A DNA stretch of 64,000 nt from Gemmatimonadota bacterium (GTDB lineage: Bacteria; Gemmatimonadota; Gemmatimonadetes; Longimicrobiales; Gaopeijiaceae). The position numbers were made by a program, and so were the translations under genes. Positions within the stretch are counted from its first letter, which is position 1, and every line of letters begins with the position of its first letter. The DNA is taken from the NCBI GenBank assembly GCA_030428885.1, contig JAUIEJ010000004.1, positions 1 to 64,000 of the forward strand, given 5' to 3'. Positions 6,297 through 32,348 of this stretch are shown here, piece by piece. The notes beneath the pieces are model-generated. The model made no database searches, was not told where the DNA came from, and worked only from the letters and a program-made list of their open reading frames with translations.

Positions 6297-6370
<74 letters not shown>

Positions 6371-6432
6371 GTGCTGGAGCCGAGTAATGTCCCTCTCCGG
6401 CCGGAGCGGGTCAAGCCCCGGTGCGAAACGAC

Positions 6433-6466
6433 GCGGCGTCCGCCGGACGGACCGGTCGGACGCCGC
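6433..6466 (-). terminator. Probable terminator of RNase P RNA
   Basis: On the minus strand a 10-bp perfect stem (GCGGCGTCCG at 6433-6442 pairing with CGGACGCCGC at 6457-6466) lies just past the RNase P RNA 3' end and is followed by GTCGTTTCG, a weak T-tract. Position supports intrinsic termination of rnpB. Confidence 0.6.
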
Positions 6467-6467
6467 G

Positions 6468-6840
<373 letters not shown>

Positions 6841-19512: not shown

Positions 19513-20718
19513 ATGGCTGGACGTATGATGCTACGCCCGGTTGCGGCCTTCCTCGTCGTCCTCGGCGGTCTGGCTGCAGGGACCCCGGCACCGGCCCTGG
19601 CTCAGGGAGACCAGGGGTGCGATCTCTGCCACGGTGAGGTGGAGCTCCTCCGCCAGCACGTGCCCAGCCTCGCCGAAGCCGAACGCCTCTCGGTGACGTC
19701 GTCGGTCATCGCCGCGTCGGCTCACGAGGGGGAATCCTGCGCGTCGTGCCACACCGGGTACCAGCGCTGGCCCCACCCCGACGGCGGCACCACCGAGACG
19801 TGCGTGTCGTGCCACGAGGAGGCGGGCCGGCTCTGGGACTCGAGCCTCCACGCCCATCCGCGGCTGGACGAGCTGGATCCCGCCGACTGCGCGTCGTGCC
19901 ACGGGAGCCACGACATCCGATGGGTGGACGAGCTCCGGGAGGACGACGGCATCCGGACCATGAACGCCACCTGCGTCTCCTGCCACGAGACCCAGGCCAT
20001 GGTGCCCTCGGAGCCCCACGGCGACACGGTCTCGTGCGCGGGCTGTCACGCGCCCCACGGAACGAAGGGGGTCGACGATCTCACGGCGGCGGTGGCCCCC
20101 CTGGCCCAGGCCGCGACCTGCGGGGCGTGTCACGAAGAGGCCGCCGAGGCCTTCCCCGGCGACGCCCACGGAGCGGCCCTGGCCGACGCCGACCCCCTGG
20201 CGCTGGACGATTTGATGGAGGCGGGGGCCGAGATGCCGGCGACCTGCACCTCGTGCCATGGAGGTCACGGCATGGTCGCCGTGGACGATACGGCCAGCCT
20301 CGCCGTTCACGTGGACGCCTGCGCCACCTGCCACGCCGATGAGGCCGACCGCTACTTCGGTACGTACCACGGCAAGGCCACGGCCCTGGGGTCCCACGTG
20401 GTGGCCACCTGCGACGACTGCCACGGGGCCCACGGCATCTTCGCCTCGGCCGAAGAGGCGTCGTGGGTCCACGAGTCGAAGCTGGTGGAGACGTGCGGCG
20501 AGTGCCACGAGCACGCCCGGGAGGCCTTCGTAGCCTACGACTCCCATCCGGACCCCCTGGATCCGGACCGCAACTTCCCCCTGTTCGTCACCTTCGTGTT
20601 CATGAACGCCCTGCTGTTGGGCGTCCTCGTGGTGTTCGGTCTGCACACCTTCCTCTGGTGGGTCCGGATCCTCATCGACAGCCGGCGGTCCGAGGCCACG
20701 GAGGGGTCCCATGGCTGA
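19513..20718 (+). CDS. 11-haem c-type cytochrome with C-terminal membrane anchor
   Basis: The 401-residue precursor has a signal peptide (MLRPVAAFLVVLGGLAAGTPAPALAQ in its first 32 residues, split here by the cleavage site after ALAQ) and eleven CxxCH haem-binding motifs spread from the mature N-terminus to about residue 330. A single membrane helix near the C-terminus (FVFMNALLLGVLVVFGLHTF) would hold it in the inner membrane facing the periplasm. Its stop lies inside the start of the cytochrome b gene (8-base overlap), so the two probably form a complex in which haem b receives quinol electrons. Other start codons at 19525 and 19528 are possible; no strong Shine-Dalgarno decides between them. 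Confidence 0.93.
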   Translation: MAGRMMLRPVAAFLVVLGGLAAGTPAPALAQGDQGCDLCHGEVELLRQHVPSLAEAERLSVTSSVIAASAHEGESCASCHTGYQRWPHPDGGTTETCVSCHEEAGRLWDSSLHAHPRLDELDPADCASCHGSHDIRWVDELREDDGIRTMNATCVSCHETQAMVPSEPHGDTVSCAGCHAPHGTKGVDDLTAAVAPLAQAATCGACHEEAAEAFPGDAHGAALADADPLALDDLMEAGAEMPATCTSCHGGHGMVAVDDTASLAVHVDACATCHADEADRYFGTYHGKATALGSHVVATCDDCHGAHGIFASAEEASWVHESKLVETCGECHEHAREAFVAYDSHPDPLDPDRNFPLFVTFVFMNALLLGVLVVFGLHTFLWWVRILIDSRRSEATEGSHG

Positions 20719-21619
20719 GGGAGAACGGGGCGCCTTCGACGCTCCCGCGCTGGTGCCCCTCGACACGGCCCAGCGGGGAAAGGGACCGTTCGTCTGGCGC
20801 TTCACCCTGCTGCATCGCCTGCTCCACGCCCTGGCGATGTCGACGTTCTACGTGCTGGTTCTCACCGGGATTCCCATTCGCTACAGTTGCGCGCCGTTTT
20901 CGGCCGAACTCATGCGGTTGTGGGGCGGTGTGGAGCGGGCCGGATTGATCCACCGCATCGCCGCCGGGGTGATGGTGGTCTACTCGGTGGCGTTCCTGGG
21001 CTGGCTCTCCATGCGGTTCATCGTGTCGAAGGAGAAGCTGAAGTGGCTCCGGGGCTACGACAGCATGGTGCCGGATCTGCAGGACGCCCGGGACTTCATC
21101 AAGCAGTGGAAGTGGTACTTCACCGGGAAGGACCGGCCCCGCTTCGGCCGCTACGGCTACCTGGAGAAGCTCGACTTCTTCGGTGAGGTCTGGGGGCTCA
21201 TCATCATCGGCGGCTCGGGCATCATTCTCTGGTTCCCCGAGTTCTTCTCCCAGTGGCTGCCGGGATGGTCGTTCAACCTGGCCACCGTCTTCCACGGGTA
21301 CGAAGCCCTCATCGCGGCCGGATTCATCTTCATCGTCCACTTCTTCAACGTGCATCTGCGGCCCGACAAGTTTCCGCTGGACGCGGTCATGTTCCACGGC
21401 CGGGGCACGCTGGAGTACATGGAAGAGGAGCACCCGGCCCTCGTGGAGGAGCTCGAGGGCCGCCTGGACGGGCCGCCGTCGCCCACCGCCGTGCTGGACG
21501 CACCCGCGCCGCCGCCGAGCCGGGTCCAGACCTTCTTCGGCGCCGTCCTGGGCTTCCTGGCCCTGGGCATCGGCGTCCTCTGCATCGGGATGATCATATG
21601 GGCCGTCGCCATCTGCTGA
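20711..21619 (+). CDS. Di-haem cytochrome b subunit (FdnI/HydC-like b561 family)
   Basis: The 302-residue protein has four main transmembrane helices and a C-terminal fifth. Likely haem b ligands are H35 or H39 (FTLLHRLLHAL), H81 (LIHRIAAG), H195 (VFHGYEAL) and H210/H215 (FIVHFFNVHL). This arrangement is that of quinone-reactive cytochrome b subunits of formate dehydrogenases, hydrogenases and multihaem complexes. Flanked by an 11-haem and a 13-haem cytochrome with overlapping ends, it is most simply the quinol-oxidising or quinone-reducing subunit of a three-part complex. The acidic loop EYMEEEHPALVEELEG before the last helix is unusual in length. Confidence 0.92.
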   Translation: MAEGERGAFDAPALVPLDTAQRGKGPFVWRFTLLHRLLHALAMSTFYVLVLTGIPIRYSCAPFSAELMRLWGGVERAGLIHRIAAGVMVVYSVAFLGWLSMRFIVSKEKLKWLRGYDSMVPDLQDARDFIKQWKWYFTGKDRPRFGRYGYLEKLDFFGEVWGLIIIGGSGIILWFPEFFSQWLPGWSFNLATVFHGYEALIAAGFIFIVHFFNVHLRPDKFPLDAVMFHGRGTLEYMEEEHPALVEELEGRLDGPPSPTAVLDAPAPPPSRVQTFFGAVLGFLALGIGVLCIGMIIWAVAIC

Positions 21620-22998
21620 CCGCCGGAACCGCCCGCCTCGGCGCCGCCACGCTCGTCGCCGCGGCTCTGGGACTGGCGGCCGCCTGCGTCTCGCCCCCGG
21701 CCGGAGCCTTCGCCCGGGTGGACGCCGAGGAGGGGCACCGCACGCTGGTGTGTGCCGACTGCCACGCCGGTCCCCTGGCCGATCGGGGTCTCGCCCAGGC
21801 CGACGAGGCGACCTGCACCGCCTCGGGGTGTCACACCGACGGCGGACCCGCCGAGGTCGTGCTGGGCTCGGTGGCCTTCGCCCACCGGGACCACGGCGGC
21901 GACTCGGTGGCGGTCATGGAGTGCTCCGGCTGCCACACCCACCCCACTCCCGCGGCGGCCCTGGTGGCCGAGGTGGACGCCTGTTCGTTCTGCCACCTCT
22001 CGGAGCAGGCGGCGGGCTCCACGGGGGAGTGCCGGCTCTGCCATCAGAACCTCGAACACGCCGGGCTCACCAGTCAGGGCGTGGAGGTGCCCCACGACGA
22101 CCTGCCCTGGATCGACGGCGGGTGCGTGCGCTGCCACTACGACGTCACCGAGCCCCCGGTGCAGGTATCGCCGCTGCGCTGCGGAGCCTGCCACGACGAC
22201 GTGGAGAGCGCCGTGGACGACGGGGCCGGCCTCGACCTCCACGTGAGTCACGCCACCAGCTCGTGCATCGCGTGCCACGACGAGGGCCAGCACCGGATCC
22301 GGGCCATGTCGTCGTCCGTGTCCCTCCAGTGCGCCGACTGCCACCGGGAGGAACACGAGGTCGCCGTGACCGCCGGGTTCCCCGACGCCGCCACCTGCAA
22401 CCGATGCCACGCCGGAGCCCACGAGCCCCAGCAGCGCATGGTGCTCGGTCTGGTGGATGATCTGGACGCCCCCGATCCGAGCCAGAAGTTCCTGGATGGC
22501 CTCACCTGCCGCTCGTGCCACCAGGCCGCGCCCGCCTCGGATCCGGCGGTGCCGGTACGGGGCCGGGTCCAGACCTGCGTGGAGTGCCACCGATCCGAGT
22601 ACGCCACCGTGGAGCGGTGGTGGCGGGAGGGCACGGCCCAGCGCGTGGCCCTGGCCGCCGCCTACGCCCGCACCGCGGTCTCGCGAGTGGGCACCGATGC
22701 CGGGGCGGAAGCCACCGCGGCGCTGGACGAGGCCGACCGGCTGATCCAGCTCGTGGACACGGCGGGAGCGGTCCACAACCTGACCCTGGCCCACCGCCTC
22801 CTGGCGACGGCCACGGAGCGGGTGTCCCAGGCCTACACCGCCGCCGGGCGGACGGCGCCCCCGGTGCCCGACCTGGGCCGGGAGCCCAACATGGGGCTGT
22901 GCAGCTACTGCCACTACCGCACCAACGACCCCTGGGTCTTCCAGGAGATGTCCGGGGCGTTCCACCGCGACGTGCTGCGGCTGTCGGGGGGAGGTTGA
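21598..22998 (+). CDS. 13-haem c-type cytochrome lipoprotein or secreted cytochrome
   Basis: The 466-residue precursor overlaps the end of the cytochrome b gene by 22 bases. Its leader (ATLVAAALGLAAAC) ends in a lipobox-like Cys, so it may be lipid-anchored. It holds twelve CxxCH motifs and one CX4CH motif (CTASGCH, about residue 79). The first ten or so lie in tight succession; a haem-free helical segment of about 80 residues (WWREGTAQRVALAAAYARTA onward) precedes the final motif CSYCH. The gene completes the cytochrome b operon and probably passes electrons from the membrane complex toward the periplasm. Confidence 0.9.
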   Translation: MGRRHLLTAGTARLGAATLVAAALGLAAACVSPPAGAFARVDAEEGHRTLVCADCHAGPLADRGLAQADEATCTASGCHTDGGPAEVVLGSVAFAHRDHGGDSVAVMECSGCHTHPTPAAALVAEVDACSFCHLSEQAAGSTGECRLCHQNLEHAGLTSQGVEVPHDDLPWIDGGCVRCHYDVTEPPVQVSPLRCGACHDDVESAVDDGAGLDLHVSHATSSCIACHDEGQHRIRAMSSSVSLQCADCHREEHEVAVTAGFPDAATCNRCHAGAHEPQQRMVLGLVDDLDAPDPSQKFLDGLTCRSCHQAAPASDPAVPVRGRVQTCVECHRSEYATVERWWREGTAQRVALAAAYARTAVSRVGTDAGAEATAALDEADRLIQLVDTAGAVHNLTLAHRLLATATERVSQAYTAAGRTAPPVPDLGREPNMGLCSYCHYRTNDPWVFQEMSGAFHRDVLRLSGGG

Positions 22999-23008
22999 GG
23001 GGACGGCC

Positions 23009-23641
23009 GTGAGCCTCTCCCCTCCGCCTCTCGCCTTCGCCGCGCTCAATCTGCGCCGCAATCCCTTCGGGTCGGTGCGGCCCGACGAGGAAGCGGGCCT
23101 GGTGGTGGTCGATGTGGGGCGGTGGGCGTCGTTTCTCGGGGACTCCTCCTCGCCGGGGCGCCGGGCGATCCAGATCCTGGGACCCCCTGGGGCCGGGAAG
23201 TCCACCCACCTGCGGGCGCTGGCCCGGCGGTGGCCGGGACACCCGGTCTGGGCGTGGTCGGCCGACCACGGCTGGCCGGCCCCGCCCGCTGCGGGCCCCC
23301 ACCTCTTCGTGGACGACGCCCACCTTCTCTCCCGCGGCGCCTTCGCTCGGGCCGTGAGCTCTCGGCGGCGGGTCGCCCTGGCCACCCAGCGGTGTCTCGA
23401 GCAGCGCCTGGAGCGCCGGGGCTTCGACGTCCGGACCGTTCCCGTCACTGCCCTCGTGGATCCGGCCCACCTGGACGCCGTGGTGCAACGCCGCCTCGTC
23501 GCGGCGCGACGGGGCCCGGGCCCCGTGCCCCGCCCCGACCGGGCCCATCTGGAGTCCCTCGTCCGTCGCCACGGACCGGACCTGCGGGCGATCCTCGACG
23601 ACCTGTACCGCTGGATCCAGCGCTTTGCGGAGGCCGCGTGA
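23009..23641 (+). CDS. Small P-loop ATPase (ExeA/TniB-like fold)
   Basis: This 210-residue protein starts with GTG ten bases after the cytochrome stop. It has the opening phrase LNLRRNPFGSV seen in ExeA- and TniB-type AAA ATPases, Walker A GPPGAGKST (58-66) and Walker B LFVDDAH (99-105). A sensor-like VALATQR follows, and a small helical C-terminal lid. It lacks a recognisable DNA-binding or membrane domain. Its stop overlaps the start of the arrestin-like gene (GTGA), so the pair work together. A role in assembling or localising the cytochrome complex is conceivable but unproven. Confidence 0.78.
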   Translation: MSLSPPPLAFAALNLRRNPFGSVRPDEEAGLVVVDVGRWASFLGDSSSPGRRAIQILGPPGAGKSTHLRALARRWPGHPVWAWSADHGWPAPPAAGPHLFVDDAHLLSRGAFARAVSSRRRVALATQRCLEQRLERRGFDVRTVPVTALVDPAHLDAVVQRRLVAARRGPGPVPRPDRAHLESLVRRHGPDLRAILDDLYRWIQRFAEAA

Positions 23642-25164
23642 GCCAGGGCATCCGCATCGAGTTCGACGGCGGCGACCGGGTGTTTCGAAGCGGCGAGACC
23701 GTAGCGGGCGCCGTGGTGGTGGAGGTGGACGATGGATCCCGGTGCGAGTACGTGATGCTCCGGGCCTCGTGGCGCACCCACGGCAAGGGCACGGTGGCCA
23801 AGGGACGCCACGGCTCCCTCACCCTCCACGAGGGGCCGATTCCGGCGGGGGTCACCCGGTTCCCGTTTCGGTTCGAGGCCCCCGGCGAACCGTTCACCTA
23901 TCGAGGTCACCTCCTCAACGTCGACCACTACCTCGAGGCCCGCATCGAGATTCCCTGGGCCCTGGACCCGTCGGTGGAGGAGGACTTCGTGGTGGTGCCC
24001 GGCGCCGTGCCGGCACCGCCGCCGGATCCCGACCAGGCCGTGGGTCCGGGGTTGGAGTCCGTGCCCAACCCCCTGCTCCCCATGGTCATCGGGAGCGTCA
24101 CGCTGGTGGTGGCCCTCCTGACGTTCCCCTTCCCGGGGATCCTCTTCCTGGTCGTGGCCGCCGCCTTCCTCTTCGCGGGACTCCGGCAGAAGGCGGCCGC
24201 ATCCCGAGTCGGCGACGTGGTGGTGATCGTGGAACCCCAGGTCGTATCGCCGGGCGACGAGGTGCGGGTGGCCGTGGGCCTCTTCCCCCCGAAGGACGTG
24301 GCCCTGAACGGGGTCACGGCCACCCTGCGGGGCGCCGAGGTCGTGGTGTCGGGAAGCGGCACCGACCGGAAGACCCACCGCCACGTGGCCCATCGCGACG
24401 AACGGCCCCTGGTGGGCGCCGGCACCCTCCCCGGCGGCGTGGAGCGGGTGCTGGAGACCACCTTCACCGTGCCGTCCCTGGGCATGTGGACCTTCGCCGC
24501 CGAGCGGAATCGGGTCCTGTGGGACGTGCGGGTGGAGGTGGACATCCCGTCCTGGCCCGACTGGTCGTCGTCCACGCCCATCGTGGTCTGGCCCGCCCGG
24601 GGCGCGGTGGAGGCCCCTGCGGCGCGCCCTCGGATCGCGGCACCCGAGCCGGCTGCGCCACCTCCACCGCCGCCCCCAAGGAAGGCGGTGGCGACGGTCG
24701 TTCCGAAGCCGGAGGCCCCGCCGGAGGTCGTGCGGGAGCCGGAGGTCGTGCCGCAGGCGAAGGCGGCTACGCCCTCCGCTCCTTCTCCCCCGGTACCGGC
24801 GCCCGCATCCGACGGCTCCTTCGCCGCCGCCGTGCGGGAGGTGCTGGACGCCGGCGTGGTCTCGGGCGACCGGCGCACCAAGGCCGCCGCACTGGTGGGC
24901 CGTTCGGTCTCGTGCGAGGTGCGGATCGAACGGGTCCAGCGACCCTTCGGCCGGAACCTGGCCGCGGGCTACGAGGGAGGCCGCACCCTCCGGGGCACCC
25001 TGGACGACTCGGGCCTCCCGGTGGAGGTGCGGATCCCCGCCGCCGACGCCGACGCCGTGGACGCCCTGAAGCGGGGCGGCACCTGGCCGACCCGAGGCAC
25101 CTTGGTGGAGTGGGCCCGCCTCCCGGACCGGCCGGTCATCGCGGCCGAGGCCCGGGGACGGTAG
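23638..25164 (+). CDS. Arrestin-like-domain membrane protein with Pro-rich linker
   Basis: The 508-residue product opens with an arrestin/Spo0M-like beta-sandwich (IRIEFDGGDRVFRSGETVAG, YVMLRASWRTHGKG). A hydrophobic pair of helices (residues about 145-185, PMVIGSVTLVVALLTFPFPG) divides it from a second beta-sandwich (VVIVEPQVVSPGDEVRVAVG). Then come a long Pro/Ala linker (PPPPPPRK) and a C-terminal domain of about 100 residues. I do not recognise this combination as a characterised family. Translational coupling to the ATPase and position behind the cytochrome operon suggest an envelope-associated complex. Stable neighbour relations would be needed to link it to electron transfer. Confidence 0.78.
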   Translation: MSQGIRIEFDGGDRVFRSGETVAGAVVVEVDDGSRCEYVMLRASWRTHGKGTVAKGRHGSLTLHEGPIPAGVTRFPFRFEAPGEPFTYRGHLLNVDHYLEARIEIPWALDPSVEEDFVVVPGAVPAPPPDPDQAVGPGLESVPNPLLPMVIGSVTLVVALLTFPFPGILFLVVAAAFLFAGLRQKAAASRVGDVVVIVEPQVVSPGDEVRVAVGLFPPKDVALNGVTATLRGAEVVVSGSGTDRKTHRHVAHRDERPLVGAGTLPGGVERVLETTFTVPSLGMWTFAAERNRVLWDVRVEVDIPSWPDWSSSTPIVVWPARGAVEAPAARPRIAAPEPAAPPPPPPPRKAVATVVPKPEAPPEVVREPEVVPQAKAATPSAPSPPVPAPASDGSFAAAVREVLDAGVVSGDRRTKAAALVGRSVSCEVRIERVQRPFGRNLAAGYEGGRTLRGTLDDSGLPVEVRIPAADADAVDALKRGGTWPTRGTLVEWARLPDRPVIAAEARGR

Positions 25165-25183
25165 CCTCATCATTCACGAAAAA

Positions 25184-25211
25184 CGCCCCAAGGCCGTAAA
25201 GCCTTGGGGCG
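25184..25211 (-). terminator. Rho-independent terminator of tRNA-Lys
   Basis: An 11-bp perfect stem (CGCCCCAAGGC at 25184-25194 with GCCTTGGGGCG at 25201-25211, 6-base loop) is followed on the minus strand by a five-T run. It lies directly after the tRNA-Lys 3' end. Symmetry also lets it act on + strand transcripts from the arrestin-like gene. Confidence 0.88.
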
Positions 25212-25216
25212 CCTAG

Positions 25217-25289
<73 letters not shown>

Positions 25290-25341
25290 GTGCCGGGCCT
25301 GCGGCCCGGAGCCCTTCAAGCTATTCGGTGAGGTGCGGCTG

Positions 25342-25800
25342 TCAACCGCCGTCGCCCAGGACGTCGGGCCGCAGCACCGCTCCGATGTAGTGGGCCACGG
25401 CGTCGATTTCCCGGGGGGTGAGGCCGGCCACACCCCAGGTGGGCATGCCCCGCACGTGTCCCACGAAGATCCGGTGCCGGATGGAGTCGGGGGCCTCGGC
25501 GTAGCGCCAACCTGCGGTGACCAGCGACGGCACCTGGAGGTTCCGCTCCAGGGCGTAGTCGGTGCCGCCTTCCCCCAGGGGCCCGTGGCAATTCCGGCAC
25601 GACGTGGAGAAGACCACGTTGCCCTCCAGGGCCCGGATGGAGTCCGACGGCCAGGCGATGGAATCGAAGAGGGCCATGGAGAACTCCCGGTCGGCCTCCA
25701 CCACCTGCTCGGCCCGATCCGGTGGCTCGAACTCGTGCTTCCCGCAGGCGGCCAGACCCACGGCCACCGTCATTGCCAGGGCCGCACCGACCCGCCTCAC
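25342..25800 (-). CDS. Monohaem cytochrome c lipoprotein
   Basis: The 152-residue product starts with a GTG overlapping the TPR gene stop by four bases. It has a lipoprotein leader (LAMTVAVGLAACG) and one class I cytochrome c domain with CRNCH in the phrase VVFSTSCRNCHGPLGEGG. A Met sixth ligand is likely in VRGMPTWGVAGLTP, and the C-terminal helix AVAHYIGAVL is typical. It is the last gene of the minus-strand multihaem operon and probably exchanges electrons with one of the larger cytochromes in the periplasm. Confidence 0.9.
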   Translation of the reverse strand: MRRVGAALAMTVAVGLAACGKHEFEPPDRAEQVVEADREFSMALFDSIAWPSDSIRALEGNVVFSTSCRNCHGPLGEGGTDYALERNLQVPSLVTAGWRYAEAPDSIRHRIFVGHVRGMPTWGVAGLTPREIDAVAHYIGAVLRPDVLGDGG

Positions 25801-26192
25801 GGACGCCCCCCTCCCGAATCGGGCGTCGCCGTGGGCATGCGGATCAGCGACGCCCCGGGAGCCAGTTCCCGGGCCGCGTCCAGGGCCGAATCGGCGGCGG
25901 CGGCGTTGCCCAGGGCCTGCTGGGCCATGTACAGGCCGAACCAGCCGGTGGGGTCGTCGGGAGACGACGCCGTGGCTTCCCGGAAGGAAGTCGCGGCGGC
26001 TTCGTACTCGCCCCGGCGGTACCGGGCGTTGCCCGAGTCGATCTGGGCCAGGGTCTCGGGCGGCAGTTCGGCCCGACCCGCCGTGGTTGGATCCAGGGAG
26101 TCGGTCTGCTGGTCGTCGGGCAGACACCCGGGGAGCGTGGCCACCAGGGCGAGAATGCCGGCGAGCCCGGCGATTCGGAGGCGGGTCGTCAT
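25797..26192 (-). CDS. Small TPR-containing lipoprotein
   Basis: The 131-residue protein has a lipobox leader (LAGILALVATLPGC) and about two tetratricopeptide-like helices pairs (IDSGNARYRRGEYEAAATSF, then PTGWFGLYMAQQALGNAAAA). It overlaps the 16-haem gene upstream and the cytochrome c gene downstream by four bases each. TPR lipoproteins often act as scaffolds for multiprotein envelope complexes, and position inside the cytochrome operon suggests such a role here. Confidence 0.8.
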   Translation of the reverse strand: MTTRLRIAGLAGILALVATLPGCLPDDQQTDSLDPTTAGRAELPPETLAQIDSGNARYRRGEYEAAATSFREATASSPDDPTGWFGLYMAQQALGNAAAADSALDAARELAPGASLIRMPTATPDSGGGRP

Positions 26193-27649
26193 TCCTGGCC
26201 CCCGATGGGCCCGATGTGGCAGGCGCTGCAGATCCAGGGATTCCGTTCCTGGGCCCGCACCGGATCGAAGTCCGGACCGTGGGGACTGACCTTGAAGGCC
26301 CCCGTCTGACTGTGGCACTGGAGACACTCCTTCTGGGTGTGGCACGAGGCGCACTGCTCGAGCCCCTGCCGGGCGCCCTGCCCGTGGCGGATCAGCCAGA
26401 GGGGTTCGGCGTCGTGGTACCCCGACCCGAGGCGCCCCACGCTCCCGAAGCCCACCTCCACGTGGCACTGGCGGCAGAAGGCCGCGGTGTTGTGGCAGTT
26501 GCTGCACTCCATGGACTGGGACCCCGCCGCCGACGCGTGACGCAGGGCGAACCCGGCGGGATGATACCCGGGGGCCGTCTGGGCGTCGTGGCAGTCGGCG
26601 CAGTAGGTCTGGGTGTGGCACGTGCTGCAGGCGTCGGGCGCCGCCGAGGCCAGGACCGTGTGGGCCGTCATGAAAAACGGCGTCTGGTGGGAGGCGGGCT
26701 GCCGGGGATCGAGGCCGACCCCGGGGGCCCGCACCTGGGGGCGCTCCGGGAGGGCCTGAGCCGACGCCGGCATGGGCGCCACGTGGCAGGCGGCGCAGTC
26801 GTTGCTGGTATGGCAGGTGGCGCAGTCGGCGGGGTTGGGGGCCGGCCGGCCGTGGGTCACCTCGAAGACGTCGTCGGTGTGCCCCTCGGGCACGAAGTAG
26901 CGGGCCTCCATGGGCGGAAGCGACCATCCGTCGGGGGCCGGTGACAGGGCCTGAATCTGGCGTCGTTCCCCGCTGACGTGGCACGACAGACAGCGGTCCT
27001 GGGTGTGGCAGGTGGCGCACCGGGCGATCCCGGACACCCCCCGGGGCCGGTGGGACCGGAGAAAGGCGTCGTCGCCCACGTCGTGGTCGTCGGGGGTGGG
27101 CAAGGTCGCCAGCAGGGCATCGCCTCCGGGTACGGCGGCAACCTCCCGGTGGCACGAGGCGCAGTCGAGCGCCGTGTAGTGCGTGTCGGGGTCGTCGCCG
27201 TGGCAGGTGAGGCACCGCTCCGGCGCCAGGGGCTCCACTTCCAGGCGCGCCCCGCCCTCGGCCACGTGGCACGACGCACACACCACGGCCTCTTCGCCCG
27301 CCGCCGCCACCGTGTCGATGTGGGCGGGATGGCTGAACTCCACCAGCCCCACGGGACGGGGCGCGGGCGTCCAGTCCACCCGGCGCTCCTCCTGGCCGTC
27401 GTGACAGCCGTCGCACGACGCGGGTTCGGGATAAAACGAGGCGGCGTCGCCCGACTCGATGCCCTGGTGGCATCCCACGCAGAGGGGAAAGAGGCCGTCG
27501 TGCCGCAGGTGGGGAAACGAGTCGGCCTCCTGGGGCGTCGGGGGACGCCAGGCCGCTTCCGCCGTCCACGACGGCGCCCCGGCCCCGGCCGTGGCGATCA
27601 TCACCATGCCGACGACGGCCATGGCCGCGGGCAGACGCAGCGAACCCAT
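26189..27649 (-). CDS. 16-haem c-type cytochrome, exported
   Basis: This 486-residue precursor has a signal peptide (LPAAMAVVGMVMIATAGAGA) and sixteen CxxCH motifs, no CX4CH, many arranged in close pairs such as CATCHTQDRCLSCH and CSTCHTQTYCADCH. There is no later membrane segment, so it should be periplasmic or held inside the adjacent outer-membrane barrel. The ATG at 27649 has GGAGG six bases upstream; an ATG three bases earlier overlaps the barrel stop. Its order directly after a barrel gene matches MtrA-type cytochromes of porin-cytochrome conduits, although the haem count is higher than the usual ten. Confidence 0.92.
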   Translation of the reverse strand: MGSLRLPAAMAVVGMVMIATAGAGAPSWTAEAAWRPPTPQEADSFPHLRHDGLFPLCVGCHQGIESGDAASFYPEPASCDGCHDGQEERRVDWTPAPRPVGLVEFSHPAHIDTVAAAGEEAVVCASCHVAEGGARLEVEPLAPERCLTCHGDDPDTHYTALDCASCHREVAAVPGGDALLATLPTPDDHDVGDDAFLRSHRPRGVSGIARCATCHTQDRCLSCHVSGERRQIQALSPAPDGWSLPPMEARYFVPEGHTDDVFEVTHGRPAPNPADCATCHTSNDCAACHVAPMPASAQALPERPQVRAPGVGLDPRQPASHQTPFFMTAHTVLASAAPDACSTCHTQTYCADCHDAQTAPGYHPAGFALRHASAAGSQSMECSNCHNTAAFCRQCHVEVGFGSVGRLGSGYHDAEPLWLIRHGQGARQGLEQCASCHTQKECLQCHSQTGAFKVSPHGPDFDPVRAQERNPWICSACHIGPIGGQE

Positions 27650-29133
27650 CATCGTCCTCCCCGGCGCAATGCCGGATCGTCTCCGAAAGCATACCTCAAC
27701 CCGAACCACCCCCGGGTCTGGTTCCAGACGTCGTCGCTGCCGCCGCGACCGGCATCCTGCCGCAGCAGGAGCATGCCGGCATCGAGTTGAACCCGCTCCG
27801 TGGCGGCCCACTCCAGCGACGCTCCGCCCCCCAACGCCCGCCCGTCACCGAGGCGGAAGGCCTCGAACTGCTGGAAGGTCGTGCCCGTCAGCCGGGCCCG
27901 CAGCGTCGGGGCGAGGCGCACGCCCACCGCCGCATCCAGGGAGTGGAGGAACGCCGACGCGCCCCAATCGACCTGCCAGGCCGCCTGGAGGTCCACCCGC
28001 TGCGACGGGCTCCACGTGCCGTTGAGTTCGGCCTGCCAGCCCCGGTCTTCCAGCGGCTCGAAGACCGTGGCCACGGCGGCGTCGCCGTAGCTCCGGGCCG
28101 CCAGGGAGAGCTGGAGCCCCGCAGTGCTGGAAAGTCCCGCGCTCAGGCGGAGCCGAGCTTCGCGGTAGGGCACGGGGCTGAAGAAGCCCCACACCGTGGA
28201 CAGCTCGAAGTAGGGCACGTAGCGCCGGGCCTCGACCTCGGCCAGAAGCCGGCCCTCCCGGAAGGCCCGCCGCAGCGTCAGGTGGGCCTTCCCCACCTGC
28301 CCGAAGGGCACGTCGTAGTCGGCCGAAGCCCGCACCTGGACAGCCCCGGGCAGGAAGGTGGCGAAGTCCAGCGCCGCCCGCTCCGCCACCAGCCCGGAAC
28401 GGTCACCGATGATCTCGCGCTGATACCGCAGTCCCAGGGAGGTCCGCACCCACCGCACCCCGGCCGCGCCCCCCCAGAGATACGCCTCCTGGTCGGGAAC
28501 GAAGTCCTCGATGCCCCGGAGCGCCTCCCGCCGGGTTTCGTTGAGCCCCCGGGCCAGGGAGCGGCCGCCGAAGGCCTCGGCCCACCATCCGGTGCCGTCC
28601 CAGCGCACGGCCCCGCCGTCGAAGCCCGAAAAGCCCAGCCCCGACGGCGTGTCCTGCCGGCCGACCCGCACGCGCAGGCGGCCCCGCTGGAGCTGGCCGT
28701 ACGCCACCAGGACGTCGAAGGGATCGTCGGCCAGCGGCCAGTCGAGTTCGCCCCGCAGGCGGTCACGGGCCCGGACCAGGCCGGTGAAGCTGAGCCCGGT
28801 CATGCCGAACCCCCACGCCGTGAATCCCACGTCCTGGGATCCCACCACCGCGGTCTCGGACGCGCCGGGCCGGTAGTAGGTGCACGGGATCGTGGGCGTG
28901 GTGCAGCTCACCGGGTTGCCGTCGATCCGCAGCCGCCCGTCGGGCCCCGCCACCGCCTCACCGGCGGCCGCCGTGTCGAGCTGGAGGGGCCGCATCTCGA
29001 AGAGCCGGACCGAGCTCGACGCCCACCCCCGCACCCCCTGCCCCGCCGCCGGTGCGGCCCGGACGCAGGCCACGACCGCCGCGGCCGCCAGAACGACCGC
29101 GGTGCGTCGCCCGGTGCGGGATCGACGGCTCAC
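27649..29133 (-). CDS. Outer-membrane beta-barrel (candidate conduit porin)
   Basis: The 494-residue protein has a GTG start, a basic signal peptide (TAVVLAAAAVVACVRAAPAAGQ region) and no cytochrome motif. The mature part is a long series of amphipathic strands with aromatic ends (GELDWPLADDPFDVLVAYGQLQ, split around residue 150; YREARLRLSAGL; GWFGLRYAFGDDP at the end), fitting a barrel of about 20 strands or more. It lies between the 20-haem and 16-haem genes and overlaps both. In known porin-cytochrome complexes a barrel of this kind houses the periplasmic cytochrome. Family membership of MtrB/OmbB cannot be shown by eye. Confidence 0.85.
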   Translation of the reverse strand: MSRRSRTGRRTAVVLAAAAVVACVRAAPAAGQGVRGWASSSVRLFEMRPLQLDTAAAGEAVAGPDGRLRIDGNPVSCTTPTIPCTYYRPGASETAVVGSQDVGFTAWGFGMTGLSFTGLVRARDRLRGELDWPLADDPFDVLVAYGQLQRGRLRVRVGRQDTPSGLGFSGFDGGAVRWDGTGWWAEAFGGRSLARGLNETRREALRGIEDFVPDQEAYLWGGAAGVRWVRTSLGLRYQREIIGDRSGLVAERAALDFATFLPGAVQVRASADYDVPFGQVGKAHLTLRRAFREGRLLAEVEARRYVPYFELSTVWGFFSPVPYREARLRLSAGLSSTAGLQLSLAARSYGDAAVATVFEPLEDRGWQAELNGTWSPSQRVDLQAAWQVDWGASAFLHSLDAAVGVRLAPTLRARLTGTTFQQFEAFRLGDGRALGGGASLEWAATERVQLDAGMLLLRQDAGRGGSDDVWNQTRGWFGLRYAFGDDPALRRGGR

Positions 29134-30884
29134 GGCACCCCCACCGGGGGAAGGGCGTGGCACTCGGCGCAGTCCCGCCCGGGACGGTGATCGACCAGGT
29201 CCTGATGACAGACCAGGCAGGCCTCCCGGTTCCGGGGCACGCCCTCGAAGGGCAGGTCCTCGTGGCATCCCACACCGGTGCACCCCACGTGGGCGTCCAC
29301 GGTGTGGGCCGTGGCCACCGGCACGGCGTGGCAGGTCATGCACGTGACCGTAGCCTCGTGATGATCGGTGTGGCAGCCCGCACACTCCCCCGTGTCCACC
29401 AGACGGGCCGGGCCCTCCTGGTGGCACGTCGCGCAGGTGACGTCGGGATGCCGGGCGTGATCGAAGGGGAACTCCCGGGTGACCGGAGTCTCCGTCACGG
29501 AGAAGGTCAGCCGCTGGGCCACGGGGAAGATGCCCCGGTCGGCGAGCACCGAGGACGCGTGGCAACTCGCACAGTCGTTGGCCGGCTCGCCGGTGTGGTG
29601 GCAGCTCCGGCAATCGGCGATGTCGGTGACGGTCAGGGCGCCGTGGGTTTCGGCGCTGGTGTGACAGGCGGTGCACTCCACGGAACGGTGGTTCGCGTGG
29701 CGGAAGGCGGTCTCCCCCGAGGTGTTGGGCGACACCTGGGACGGCTCCTGGGCCCGGGCGACCCGGGGCGTGGAGGCGGGTAGCGCGCCGATGTCGTCGG
29801 CGAAGGACGGCCCGCCCACGGGACGATCCCCCGGGGGGGTGTGCAGGTAGAGCGCCGCGGCCTGAATGGGGCGGGCCCGGCGGCCTCCGTCCCCCACCGG
29901 CTCGAGGCGCGCCGAGGCGCCTCCCGGGCCGTCGTCGAAGATGTCCTGGTGGCAGGAGAGGCAGTCGTCGCCGTCGAGGGTCCAGTCGTGGGCCGCGTGG
30001 CACTGACTGCAATTCTCGATGTCGGCGTGGTCCAGCCCCCGATGGAACGGGGTCAGCTCCCGCACGTCGTCGTGGCACCCCACCGTGGCGCAGGTTTCCA
30101 CGGCGTCGGCCGGGGTGGTCTGCTCGTGGGGGTTGTGGCAGGTCGAACACACCTGCTCGTGGGGCTCGTCGGGCGGCATGTCCACCAACACCCGCATGGC
30201 GTGGCACGACAGGCACTCGTTCTGGGTGGGAGCCAGCGCCTCCCGGGCCTCCGCCGCGTCGGCGGTAGTGGGAATGGACCGGCTGAACCCGTGGCACGCC
30301 GCACAGTGGATCGTGAAGTCGCCCATGCGGCCGAGCTGGACCTCGACATCGGTGTGGCACCCGCTCTGAGCGCACGTCTCGTCGGTGGCCGCGAACTCGT
30401 GGAGGCCCGACGAGTGGCACTCCACGCACAACAGCCCCTCGAGGTCGGGATCCTCGGACTGGAGGTGGACCCGATGGCCCGCCGAATTGCGGATGGTCTC
30501 CCACGTCTCGGGGTCGCCGTCGATGTGGCAGGCGGCACACGCCTCGTTGGTGACGACGGCGTGGACCTCGATGGTGTCGGGCGCCTCCAGCACCTGGGTG
30601 AGGGCCATCGAGCTCCGGGCGGCGAAGGTCGGCTGGTGGCACGCCTTGCAACCCAGGCCCCGGTGGGCGCTCCGGGCGAAGCGCTCGAAGGGCTCCGCCA
30701 TGAGGTGGCACGACATGCAGAAGTCGTTGTCGTGCTGGACGTAGTCGTACGTCTGGTACGCGTAGTACCCGCCCGCGCTGACGCCGCCGGCCCCGAGGAG
30801 GCCGACGGCGAGCAGCACCGCAACGGGATGCCGGGCGGTCAGGTCGCTCACGCGACCCGCCGCCCGGCGGAAGAACCCCTTCAT
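29130..30884 (-). CDS. NapC-headed 20-haem membrane-anchored cytochrome
   Basis: The 584-residue protein has one N-terminal membrane helix (about residues 20-42) directly followed by a NapC/NirT-like start: CMSCH at 56-60, then LMAEPFERFARSAHRGLGCKACH. Seventeen CxxCH motifs and three CX4CH motifs (CAQSGCH, CATVGCH, CTGVGCH) give up to twenty haems. NapC-type heads take electrons from quinol; here the head is joined to a haem chain long enough to cross the periplasm. A haem-free stretch of about 90 residues (PGGASARLEP to SPNTSGETAF) divides the chain into two halves. It overlaps the barrel gene by four bases (GTGA). Confidence 0.92.
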   Translation of the reverse strand: MKGFFRRAAGRVSDLTARHPVAVLLAVGLLGAGGVSAGGYYAYQTYDYVQHDNDFCMSCHLMAEPFERFARSAHRGLGCKACHQPTFAARSSMALTQVLEAPDTIEVHAVVTNEACAACHIDGDPETWETIRNSAGHRVHLQSEDPDLEGLLCVECHSSGLHEFAATDETCAQSGCHTDVEVQLGRMGDFTIHCAACHGFSRSIPTTADAAEAREALAPTQNECLSCHAMRVLVDMPPDEPHEQVCSTCHNPHEQTTPADAVETCATVGCHDDVRELTPFHRGLDHADIENCSQCHAAHDWTLDGDDCLSCHQDIFDDGPGGASARLEPVGDGGRRARPIQAAALYLHTPPGDRPVGGPSFADDIGALPASTPRVARAQEPSQVSPNTSGETAFRHANHRSVECTACHTSAETHGALTVTDIADCRSCHHTGEPANDCASCHASSVLADRGIFPVAQRLTFSVTETPVTREFPFDHARHPDVTCATCHQEGPARLVDTGECAGCHTDHHEATVTCMTCHAVPVATAHTVDAHVGCTGVGCHEDLPFEGVPRNREACLVCHQDLVDHRPGRDCAECHALPPVGVP

Positions 30885-30908
30885 CGGTTCACCGAGAGTG
30901 TACCCGGC

Positions 30909-32348
30909 TCACCGCAGAGGACCACCTGGAACCAACTGGCGCTCCAGCGACACGCCCTGCACCGACAGACCGTACTGGCTCTGGAGCTGCTGGATGCTGG
31001 CGATCATGAGCGCCTCGGCGAGGAACGGGTTGTGGGCCGCCGTGCCGTTGAACTCGGCGAAGCCCGCGTTGAACTTGGCCCCTTCACCCGTGGTGAACTT
31101 GCCGTCGGAGGTGTCGAATTCCGAGGCGGGAACCTGAGCCACCAGGGCGTTGACCTGATCGGCAAGATTCTGGAGTCGGAGCGTCGCCGCAAGCATGGCG
31201 GCCCGAGCGCCCGAGGCCGACCCGTGACATCCGGAGACGGCGCACCCCTCGTAGTTCTTGCCCGTATCGGCGCAGTCCTGATCCGCCGCAGGAGCGCCGT
31301 TCGCGTCGACGCACGGCGTGGCCAGGAACCGGTGCCCGGTGGCAGTGACCACGAACTCACCGGTCGCCGCATCCGTCACCTCGTAGCTGTTCACGTGGCA
31401 GCCGGCGCACAGACCCGGGTTCGCGTCCGACCCGTGGGTGGCCACGATGTCGCCGGGGCCCAGGTCGAGGTTCGGGGGCCACCAGCCCGCCTCACCGACC
31501 AGGAGGGGACCCTGGGGCGAGTGGGGGCCACGGGACGACGTGGGATCGGGCACGCCCCGCTTGTGGTGGCACTTCATGCAGAGGTTCTGATCCTCGTTGG
31601 GCACGGAGATCGAGAACCGGAGCTGCCCTTCGAAGTCCGACCCGTGGGGGTCGTGGCAGACCGCACACGTGATGGACAGGTGATTGCCCGTGAGGTCGGA
31701 GTCCTCCTCGATGTACGGATCGTTGACCCCGAAGGCCTTGAGCGCCCCCGCCCCGGTGTGGCAGGACTGACAGGCCTCACGGCCCTGGGCACCCTCGTAC
31801 ATGTCGCCGTGCCGCGACTGGGCCCACTCTTCCGCGAACGGATGATGGGAGCCCTGGTGGCACTCTCCGCAACCGAGGGTCAGGTCCAGGCCCACGTCTA
31901 CCGGCGCCAGCGGGATGTTGCCGTCGTTCGGCGCCGTCACGTGGTCGAGTCCGGGCCCGTGGCAGCTCTCGCATTGGACGTCGTGGTAGCGGTCCTCGGC
32001 CGTAGCGGTGTACCCCGCGGCCGTCGTCTGCGTGTTCCCGAGCTCGTTGACGGTGTGACAACCCTCGCAGAACGCCTGGGCGTGTCCACTGTCCTGGAGA
32101 CCGGCCCATGCATCGGCGTGGGCAGAACCCTCCCATTGCCCCTGGGGACCCACGTGGCAGTTCCCGCACACGGTGAGTTTCGTCGACTGGTCGGTGTAGC
32201 CCACGAACCCCAAGGCAGCCTCCAAGGGTTCCTCGAAGAGCTCCCGATCCCGGAAGACGATGGTCTCGTCCGTACAGGCGGTGGACGCCAGGGTCCCGGC
32301 GACGACGGCGAGGAACGCGGTCCAGGCCCTCGTTCTTCCTGGTCTCAT
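30909..32348 (-). CDS. 9-haem cytochrome c lipoprotein
   Basis: This 479-residue protein leads the operon. It has a lipobox leader (FLAVVAGTLASTAC) and eight CxxCH plus one CX4CH motif (CAVSGCH, about residue 360). The early phrase CGNCHVGPQGQWEGSAHADAW resembles the N-terminus of cytochrome c554-type multihaem proteins. The last 110 residues carry no haem and look helical (LRLQNLADQVNALVAQVP). A lipid anchor fits either leaflet facing the periplasm or the cell surface; as the extracellular partner of a conduit it would be the MtrC/OmcA analogue. That placement is inference. Confidence 0.9.
   Translation of the reverse strand: MRPGRTRAWTAFLAVVAGTLASTACTDETIVFRDRELFEEPLEAALGFVGYTDQSTKLTVCGNCHVGPQGQWEGSAHADAWAGLQDSGHAQAFCEGCHTVNELGNTQTTAAGYTATAEDRYHDVQCESCHGPGLDHVTAPNDGNIPLAPVDVGLDLTLGCGECHQGSHHPFAEEWAQSRHGDMYEGAQGREACQSCHTGAGALKAFGVNDPYIEEDSDLTGNHLSITCAVCHDPHGSDFEGQLRFSISVPNEDQNLCMKCHHKRGVPDPTSSRGPHSPQGPLLVGEAGWWPPNLDLGPGDIVATHGSDANPGLCAGCHVNSYEVTDAATGEFVVTATGHRFLATPCVDANGAPAADQDCADTGKNYEGCAVSGCHGSASGARAAMLAATLRLQNLADQVNALVAQVPASEFDTSDGKFTTGEGAKFNAGFAEFNGTAAHNPFLAEALMIASIQQLQSQYGLSVQGVSLERQLVPGGPLR

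What the first reader, a model, noticed from the sequence alone, without database searches (positions are those of the whole stretch)
19513..32348. Two-armed multihaem electron-transfer locus with about 70 haem motifs
Six cytochromes (11, 13, 1, 16, 20 and 9 haem-binding motifs), a cytochrome b, an outer-membrane barrel and a TPR lipoprotein lie in two convergent operons within 12.8 kb. The + strand set looks like a quinone-reactive cytochrome b complex. The - strand set has the parts of a porin-cytochrome conduit. Together they give a full route from the quinone pool to the cell surface, or the reverse. I know of no characterised system with this gene order in the suggested phylum. The subunit roles are inferred from motifs and order.
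Basis: partly seen in the sequence, partly recalled or inferred. Interest (0 to 1): 0.88.

Follow-up and report, generated by a model that had tools for sequence, protein, structure and literature searches.

The report
Gemmatimonadota cytochrome wire across cell envelope
A cluster of genes in an uncultured soil- or sediment-type bacterium encodes a chain of haem proteins and an outer-membrane barrel that very probably carries electrons between the inner membrane and the outside of the cell; the kind is known, but this version is a distinct one that recurs across the phylum Gemmatimonadota and for which I found no earlier description.

Summary
In detail: exactly 70 haem motifs (11, 13, 1, 16, 20, 9) in six cytochromes, with a cytochrome b, a barrel and a TPR lipoprotein, in two convergent gene sets. 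The 9-, 16- and 20-haem proteins each have as many conserved non-motif histidines as haems, which fits wires, not enzymes. The barrel models as a 22-strand beta-barrel without a plug. It is followed by the 16-haem gene in 68 of 71 related loci, nearly all Gemmatimonadota. The - strand set is a porin-cytochrome conduit with its own quinone end: the 20-haem protein is a natural fusion of an 11-haem NrfH/ImcH-like anchor and a 9-haem relay, encoded apart elsewhere. The + strand set is a split CbcL-like bc cytochrome. In relatives its genes, or fused 19-haem versions, sit inside the barrel operon, usually without the 20-haem gene. So the two arms look like alternative quinone entries to one conduit. 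The 16-haem protein changes length between relatives by whole two-haem units (12, 16, 18). Direction and substrate are unproven; export to an extracellular acceptor is likelier. It is a new, phylum-typical variant of a known kind.

The parts
19525..20718 (+). A: 11-haem c-type cytochrome with signal peptide and one C-terminal membrane helix (a start at 19513 is equally possible)
   Evidence: 11 CXXCH; Cytochrome_C7 E 2e-16; hydrophobic helix 353-371; homologue sits in the barrel operon in relatives
20711..21619 (+). B: dihaem cytochrome b of FdhI/HydC type, quinone-reactive subunit
   Evidence: TIGR01583 E 4e-8, below its cut-off; four invariant His 39, 81, 195, 210 in 20 homologues; same domain fused to a 19-haem c domain in relatives
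21598..22998 (+). C: 13-haem lipoprotein-like cytochrome, proposed periplasmic relay
   Evidence: 12 CXXCH + 1 CX4CH; lipobox-like LAAAC; 13 haems kept in G002 and G005
23009..23641 (+). D: small AAA ATPase downstream of C; probably not part of the system
   Evidence: AAA_16 E 5e-5, below cut-off; C runs directly into convergent F in G002 with no room for it
23638..25164 (+). E: arrestin-like protein; probably not part of the system
   Evidence: Arrestin_N E 5e-10; not next to C in G002
25216..25289 (-). tRNA-Lys (CTT) between the two convergent sets
   Evidence: ARAGORN and Rfam
25342..25800 (-). F: mono-haem lipoprotein cytochrome c of cbb3-III type
   Evidence: Cytochrome_CBB3 E 1e-11; lipobox
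25797..26192 (-). G: small TPR lipoprotein
   Evidence: TPR_11 E 5e-7; conserved after H in many family f1/f2 loci
26189..27652 (-). H: 16-haem cytochrome, proposed wire through the barrel
   Evidence: 16 motifs and 16 further His, all invariant in 18 homologues; adjacent to I in 68/71 loci; two-haem repeat units about 65 residues apart
27649..29133 (-). I: outer-membrane beta-barrel, proposed sheath
   Evidence: AF2 model pLDDT 83.8, about 22 strands; matches 22-strand TonB-dependent receptor barrels, Z up to 19.5, rmsd 4.2, 359 aligned
29130..30884 (-). J: 20-haem cytochrome = 11-haem NrfH/ImcH-like membrane-anchored module (about 1-320) fused to 9-haem module (about 375-584)
   Evidence: N-terminal part matches NrfH 2j7a_C E 2e-10; both parts occur as separate genes elsewhere
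30909..32348 (-). K: 9-haem lipoprotein cytochrome, proposed surface terminal reductase
   Evidence: Lipobox STAC; lipobox-like in 26/29 homologues; profile matches 6qvm (E 5e-17) and 6i5b (E 9e-13)

Best explanation
The locus encodes an envelope-spanning electron conduit with two alternative quinone ends. Proposed path: quinol in the inner membrane is oxidised either by J (NrfH/ImcH-like N-terminal module, then its own 9-haem relay) or by A-B(-C) (CbcL-like split bc cytochrome plus 13-haem relay). Electrons pass to H, whose haem chain runs through the lumen of barrel I, and then to K, an outer-membrane lipoprotein cytochrome facing an extracellular acceptor (metal oxide, humics, other cells). 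Shown here: gene content, invariant motifs and ligand counts, barrel fold (model), conserved gene order, module swapping. Inferred: insertion of H in I, surface location of K, electron direction, acceptor, and that the two quinone ends work at different potentials as ImcH and CbcL do in Geobacter (PMC12307469).
For: Distal His equal haems: H 16/16, J 20/20 with a CXXCHXM first motif, K 9/9. Barrel: about 22 strands, no plug. I-H adjacent in 68/71 loci; K on the same strand in 34/45 loci with enough upstream sequence; order kept over five families of the class. J N-part matches NrfH, C-part c3/Hmc proteins; the split forms carry 11 and 9-10 haems. K profile matches 6qvm and OcwA. A-B or fused 19-haem-cytochrome-b genes lie on the barrel strand in 13 loci, 9 without J20. 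H and B co-occur across 395 genomes of the phylum (B in 51 of 125 with H, 18 of 270 without; within 12 kb in 25 of 46 scored). Pairwise distances of I and H correlate, r 0.82.
Against: No biochemical data for any member. The model of H is poor (pLDDT 59), so its shape and fit in I are untested. No sequence link of I to a proven conduit barrel. K is the most conserved subunit (mean pairwise identity 45%), whereas surface cytochromes of Geobacter and Mtr conduits are the most variable (PMC6148476, PMC8805035), so its surface position is not secure. The genome also has haem-copper oxidases and NosZ, so the conduit is not its only respiration. Co-occurrence statistics are not corrected for relatedness, and the loci were chosen because they carry H.
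Confidence: 0.75

Rival explanations
1. Same conduit, opposite direction: K takes electrons from an extracellular donor such as Fe(II) or Mn(II), and J or A-B reduce quinone.
For: [quoted passage not shown] One homologous locus, L072, is from a contig named 'Mn-Gemmatimonadetes-2'.
Against: ImcH-type modules are so far tied to quinol oxidation only (PMC6295460). The RuBisCO search gave only a weak partial match in this genome, so autotrophy on a metal is not evident; other CO2-fixation routes were not searched.
Confidence: 0.25
2. Two separate systems that happen to be neighbours: a conduit (K-J-I-H-G-F) and an unrelated bc-cytochrome quinone oxidoreductase (A-B-C).
For: They lie on opposite strands with a tRNA and two unrelated genes between them. 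In 21 of 46 scored genomes with both H and B, the two are further than 12 kb apart or on other contigs. J alone can supply the quinone end.
Against: A-B or fused forms are inside the barrel operon in many relatives, mostly where J20 is missing; G005 has C, B, A, H, I, J, K on one strand.
Confidence: 0.2
3. A periplasmic electron-storage or redox-balancing cluster in which the barrel is an ordinary substrate porin.
For: Ligand counts suggest that all haems of H, J and K are six-coordinate, and no terminal enzyme is encoded. The closest solved barrels are transport proteins.
Against: Barrel-wire adjacency is near-universal; I and H distances correlate (r 0.82); the model is a barrel without a plug; K resembles surface reductases.
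Confidence: 0.07

Closest known systems
Porin-cytochrome conduits of Geobacter sulfurreducens (OmbB-OmaB-OmcB, ExtABCD, ExtEFG, ExtHIJKL; PMC6148476)
   Same: Periplasmic multihaem cytochrome, outer-membrane barrel and redox lipoprotein encoded together
   Different: The quinone module (J or A-B) is encoded with the conduit; the wire has 16 haems; the lipoprotein is the most conserved part. Direct homology to the Geobacter barrels could not be tested
MtrCAB / MtoAB / PioAB (PMC8805035)
   Same: Barrel plus multihaem wire plus surface cytochrome
   Different: I does not reach the MtrB/PioB model, H does not reach the DmsE/MtrA model. Only one Gemmatimonadetes genome was reported with MtrCAB (PMC8805035)
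CbcL / CbcBA bc-type quinol oxidases (PMC6295460, PMC12307469)
   Same: Multihaem c-type part with a cytochrome b that has four conserved His
   Different: Here split into A (11 haem) and B, with a third 13-haem subunit; fused 19-haem versions exist in relatives
ImcH and NrfH (NapC/NirT family)
   Same: N-terminal membrane helix, CXXCHXM first haem, profile match to NrfH
   Different: 11 haems, and fused to a further 9-haem module
PCC3 (PMC5566968)
   Same: Porin, multihaem cytochromes of many haems, inner-membrane dihaem cytochrome b in one cluster
   Different: PCC3 surface and periplasmic cytochromes have medians of 34 and 21 haems, and its inner-membrane protein has two WX3HX13H motifs; B has H39, H81 and one HX14H
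Surface reductases 6qvm (multihaem cytochrome of Carboxydothermus, my attribution) and OcwA 6i5b (my attribution)
   Same: K profile matches both
   Different: K has 9 haems and belongs to a Gram-negative conduit

Membership tests
Porin-cytochrome conduit (three key elements of PMC6148476) | Periplasmic multihaem c-type cytochrome | tested here: met
   H: N-terminal export signal (hydrophobic 7-25), 16 invariant haem motifs with 16 invariant other His; periplasmic location itself is predicted
Porin-cytochrome conduit (three key elements of PMC6148476) | Integral outer-membrane beta-barrel encoded beside it | tested here: met
   22-strand model, pLDDT 83.8; I-H adjacent in 68/71 loci
Porin-cytochrome conduit (three key elements of PMC6148476) | Outer-membrane redox lipoprotein | tested here: inconclusive
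   K has 9 haems and a lipobox (26/29 homologues); outer-leaflet location not tested
[quoted passage not shown]
   Needs liposome or whole-cell assay
MtrCAB / PioAB | Barrel of MtrB/PioB family (TIGR03509) | tested here: not met
   Window protein no match; 1 of 32 homologues at E 0.047 only
MtrCAB / PioAB | DmsE/MtrA-family decahaem (TIGR03508) | tested here: not met
   H no match; 1 of 18 homologues at E 0.004; 16 not 10 haems
CbcL/MtrH/MtoC family | Cytochrome b with two haem-b sites (four His) | tested here: met
   H39, H81, H195, H210 invariant in 20 homologues
CbcL/MtrH/MtoC family | c-type multihaem domain and cytochrome b in one polypeptide | tested here: not met
   A and B are separate genes here; fused in L059, L094, L128 and others
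CbcL/MtrH/MtoC family | Quinol oxidation or quinone reduction | not testable with these tools
   Needs membrane assay
NapC/NirT/NrfH quinol dehydrogenases (J N-part) | N-terminal membrane helix followed by CXXCHXM haem motif and sequence match | tested here: met
   Helix 21-39, C56-H60-x-M62 (Met in 94%), NrfH 2j7a_C E 2e-10 over profile 19-85
NapC/NirT/NrfH quinol dehydrogenases (J N-part) | Small tetra/pentahaem protein | tested here: not met
   11 haems in the N-part, 20 in all
PCC3 | Inner-membrane protein with two WX3HX13H motifs | tested here: not met
   B has single His 39 and 81 and one HX14H pair
Hmc complex (HmcA-F) | 16-haem HmcA with NrfD- and ferredoxin-type partners | tested here: not met
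   H of the window does not match the HmcA model; every gene of the set is accounted for and none is of those families

The most novel reading that the evidence does not exclude
A separate, phylum-typical class of outer-membrane conduit in Gemmatimonadota. Its inner-membrane quinone modules are exchangeable cassettes (NrfH/ImcH-like J, CbcL-like A-B or fused 19-haem forms) plugged into one barrel-wire core. The wire's reach is set in whole two-haem steps (12, 16, 18 haems), so that J plus H can cross the periplasm without soluble carriers. It would make facultative O2- and N2O-respiring Gemmatimonadota extracellular respirers.
Probability: 0.45. Interest if true: 0.75.

Novelty: new variant of a known kind. 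Interest (0 to 1): 0.6.

Why it matters
Gemmatimonadota are abundant in soils and sediments but mostly uncultured, and the literature found here credits them with single MtrCAB, CbcL or ImcH homologues only (PMC8805035, PMC6295460). A conduit core whose wire gene is found in about a third of 395 sampled genomes of the phylum would add extracellular electron transfer as a common trait. The natural swapping of quinone modules and the stepwise wire length give direct tests of how conduits are built and matched to redox potential.

Tried and rejected
Structure of H: AF2 with 18 homologues gave pLDDT 59 and no usable fold match, so no claim on its shape. MtrB was not among the listed fold matches of I; that absence proves nothing. 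Sequence search of I against solved structures found nothing. B alone had no match in solved structures. Idea that the two arms are two halves of one linear chain: set aside because J has its own quinone module. Idea that H, J and K are catalytic (nitrite, hydroxylamine or tetrathionate type): set aside because each haem has a conserved candidate distal ligand and no CXXCK occurs. Idea of a polymerised nanowire: the K profile gave no OmcS/OmcE/OmcZ match at E 0.1, not excluded. Literature: searches for Gemmatimonadota with porin-cytochrome, MtrCAB or multihaem terms found no description of this order; subscription papers were not searchable. Annotated record of CP070829 not held.
Full report
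Check of the observation. ORF and motif scans confirm every gene and count: 11, 13, 1, 16, 20 and 9 haem motifs, 70 in all. No other ORF of 100 aa or more in the 64 kb has a CXXCH. Refined genes: A 19525-20718, B 20711-21619, C 21598-22998 on +; K 30909-32348, J 29130-30884, I 27649-29133, H 26189-27652, G 25797-26192, F 25342-25800 on -. J, I, H, G and F overlap by 4 bp each, as in one translation-coupled transcript.

Where it is. The window is part of a 5.39 Mb, 23-contig genome. Named relatives of H come almost only from Gemmatimonadota MAGs, with one Krumholzibacteriota record; none of the 78 loci bears the name of a cultured species.

Conservation. The barrel has homologues in 39 of 117 relatives. 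The order K-J-I-H, often followed by G-F, recurs over several families of the class. Among 71 named loci that hold both I and H, 68 have them adjacent on one strand; of 45 with at least 6 kb upstream, 34 have K and 27 have J20. H homologues occur in 125 of 395 sampled genomes of the phylum; one same-genus genome that is 97% complete lacks it, so the cassette is accessory. The own genome has one copy of the barrel.

Wires, not enzymes. In H all 32 histidines are accounted for as haem ligands by position: 16 in motifs and 16 others, all invariant in 18 homologues. J has 20 motifs and 20 well-conserved other histidines, plus a Met two residues after its first motif. K has 9 and 9. One-to-one pairing is an inference from counts, but it fits bis-His wires and speaks against an open catalytic site. 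A and C were not tested in this way, for want of enough homologues.

The barrel. AF2 with 32 homologues gives pLDDT 83.8 and about 22 long strands (my count from the listed elements). The best solved matches are 22-strand TonB-dependent receptor barrels aligned after their plug (5fp2_B: Z 19.5, rmsd 4.2, 359 aligned). A shared fold shows no function. A barrel of that size has a lumen wide enough for a domain of plug size; that a multihaem protein fills it is inference. There is no MtrB/PioB, Pfam or PDB sequence match above threshold for the window protein.

J is two modules. Its first 320 residues hold 11 haems and match NrfH (2j7a_C, E 2e-10), its last 200 hold 9 haems and match c3/Hmc-type cytochromes. 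In L049 and L063 the 11-haem part is a separate gene, and in L048, L057, L064 and others the 9-10-haem part stands alone between K and I. Distant 11- and 20-haem forms carry an extra N-terminal hydrophobic helix, which recalls ImcH, described as having its third helix and first motifs similar to NapC/NirT (PMC6295460).

The + strand set. B has four invariant histidines in the spacing of FdhI/HydC-type cytochromes b (the spacing comparison is from general knowledge). In relatives the same domain is fused to a 19-haem c domain in proteins of about 950 residues, or to 11-haem forms, that is, CbcL-like. These genes lie in the barrel operon in L081, L094, L108, L109, L123-L125, L128, L132, L135, L138, L139; of 13 loci counted with upstream sequence, 9 lack J20. 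G005 has both arms on one strand; G002 has them convergent as here, with C and F 18 bp apart. Across 395 genomes, B-like genes occur in 51 of 125 with H and 18 of 270 without (Fisher p about 1e-15, not corrected for relatedness).

Length steps. H carries pairs of motifs C-x2-CH-x4/5-C-x2-CH. The window H has five pairs, the first three 65 residues apart. Forms with 18 haems have six pairs; forms with 12 have three and lack just the stretch holding two of the 65-residue units. Identity between units 1 and 2 is 26% against a shuffled mean of 7% (maximum 20%); part of this comes from the shared haem motifs themselves. The wire thus seems to change by whole two-haem units. The 12-haem forms go with 19-haem CbcL-like genes.

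K. Its profile matches 6qvm (E 5e-17), 6i5b (E 9e-13) and, weaker, 6r2q_A of the MtrCAB structure (E 5e-6). It has a lipobox. Yet it is the most conserved subunit, unlike surface cytochromes of Geobacter and Mtr systems (PMC6148476, PMC8805035); that is unexplained.

Mechanism. In G. sulfurreducens, ImcH (NapC/NirT-like) works above -0.1 V and CbcL at lower potential, feeding shared outer-membrane conduits (PMC12307469). The parallel here is J and A-B(-C). I judge a trans-outer-membrane conduit very likely, export likelier than uptake (a genome with oxidases and a Sec-dependent-type NosZ, and only a weak partial RuBisCO match), and potential-dependent dual entry plausible but untested.

Verdict. 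Known kind, new variant, typical of Gemmatimonadota. In the text library searched I found one MtrCAB, one CbcL and two ImcH homologues credited to the phylum (PMC8805035, PMC6295460) and no account of this cassette.

Noticed in passing
window 23009-25164 (+): AAA ATPase and arrestin-like genes follow C closely and with a 4 bp overlap to each other, but are absent at the same junction in G002; they look inserted.
   Followed up: partly
window 25216-25289 (-): tRNA-Lys (CTT) sits between the two convergent cytochrome sets, a possible insertion point.
   Followed up: no
L035 (G010:C25:1-20000): Two convergent conduit cassettes in one genome: K-J20-I-H-G-F facing K-JC(10 haem)-I-H-A(9 haem), with homology to the same window proteins.
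   Followed up: partly
L076 and L106: A second K gene takes the place of J between K and the barrel.
   Followed up: no
L120: Complete K-J20-I-H cassette on a 275 kb contig labelled Candidatus Krumholzibacteriota; transfer between phyla or a binning error.
   Followed up: no
window 28880-28905 (-), barrel I residues 77 and 84: Two near-invariant cysteines in the region after the first strand of the barrel, possibly a disulphide.
   Followed up: no
G000:C11:148908-150707: NosZ of the Sec-dependent type (TIGR04246, 923 bits), about 120 kb from the locus on the same contig.
   Followed up: partly
window 6297-6833 (-): RNase P RNA class A at 6466-6833, beside a tRNA-Arg gene at 6297-6370.
   Followed up: no
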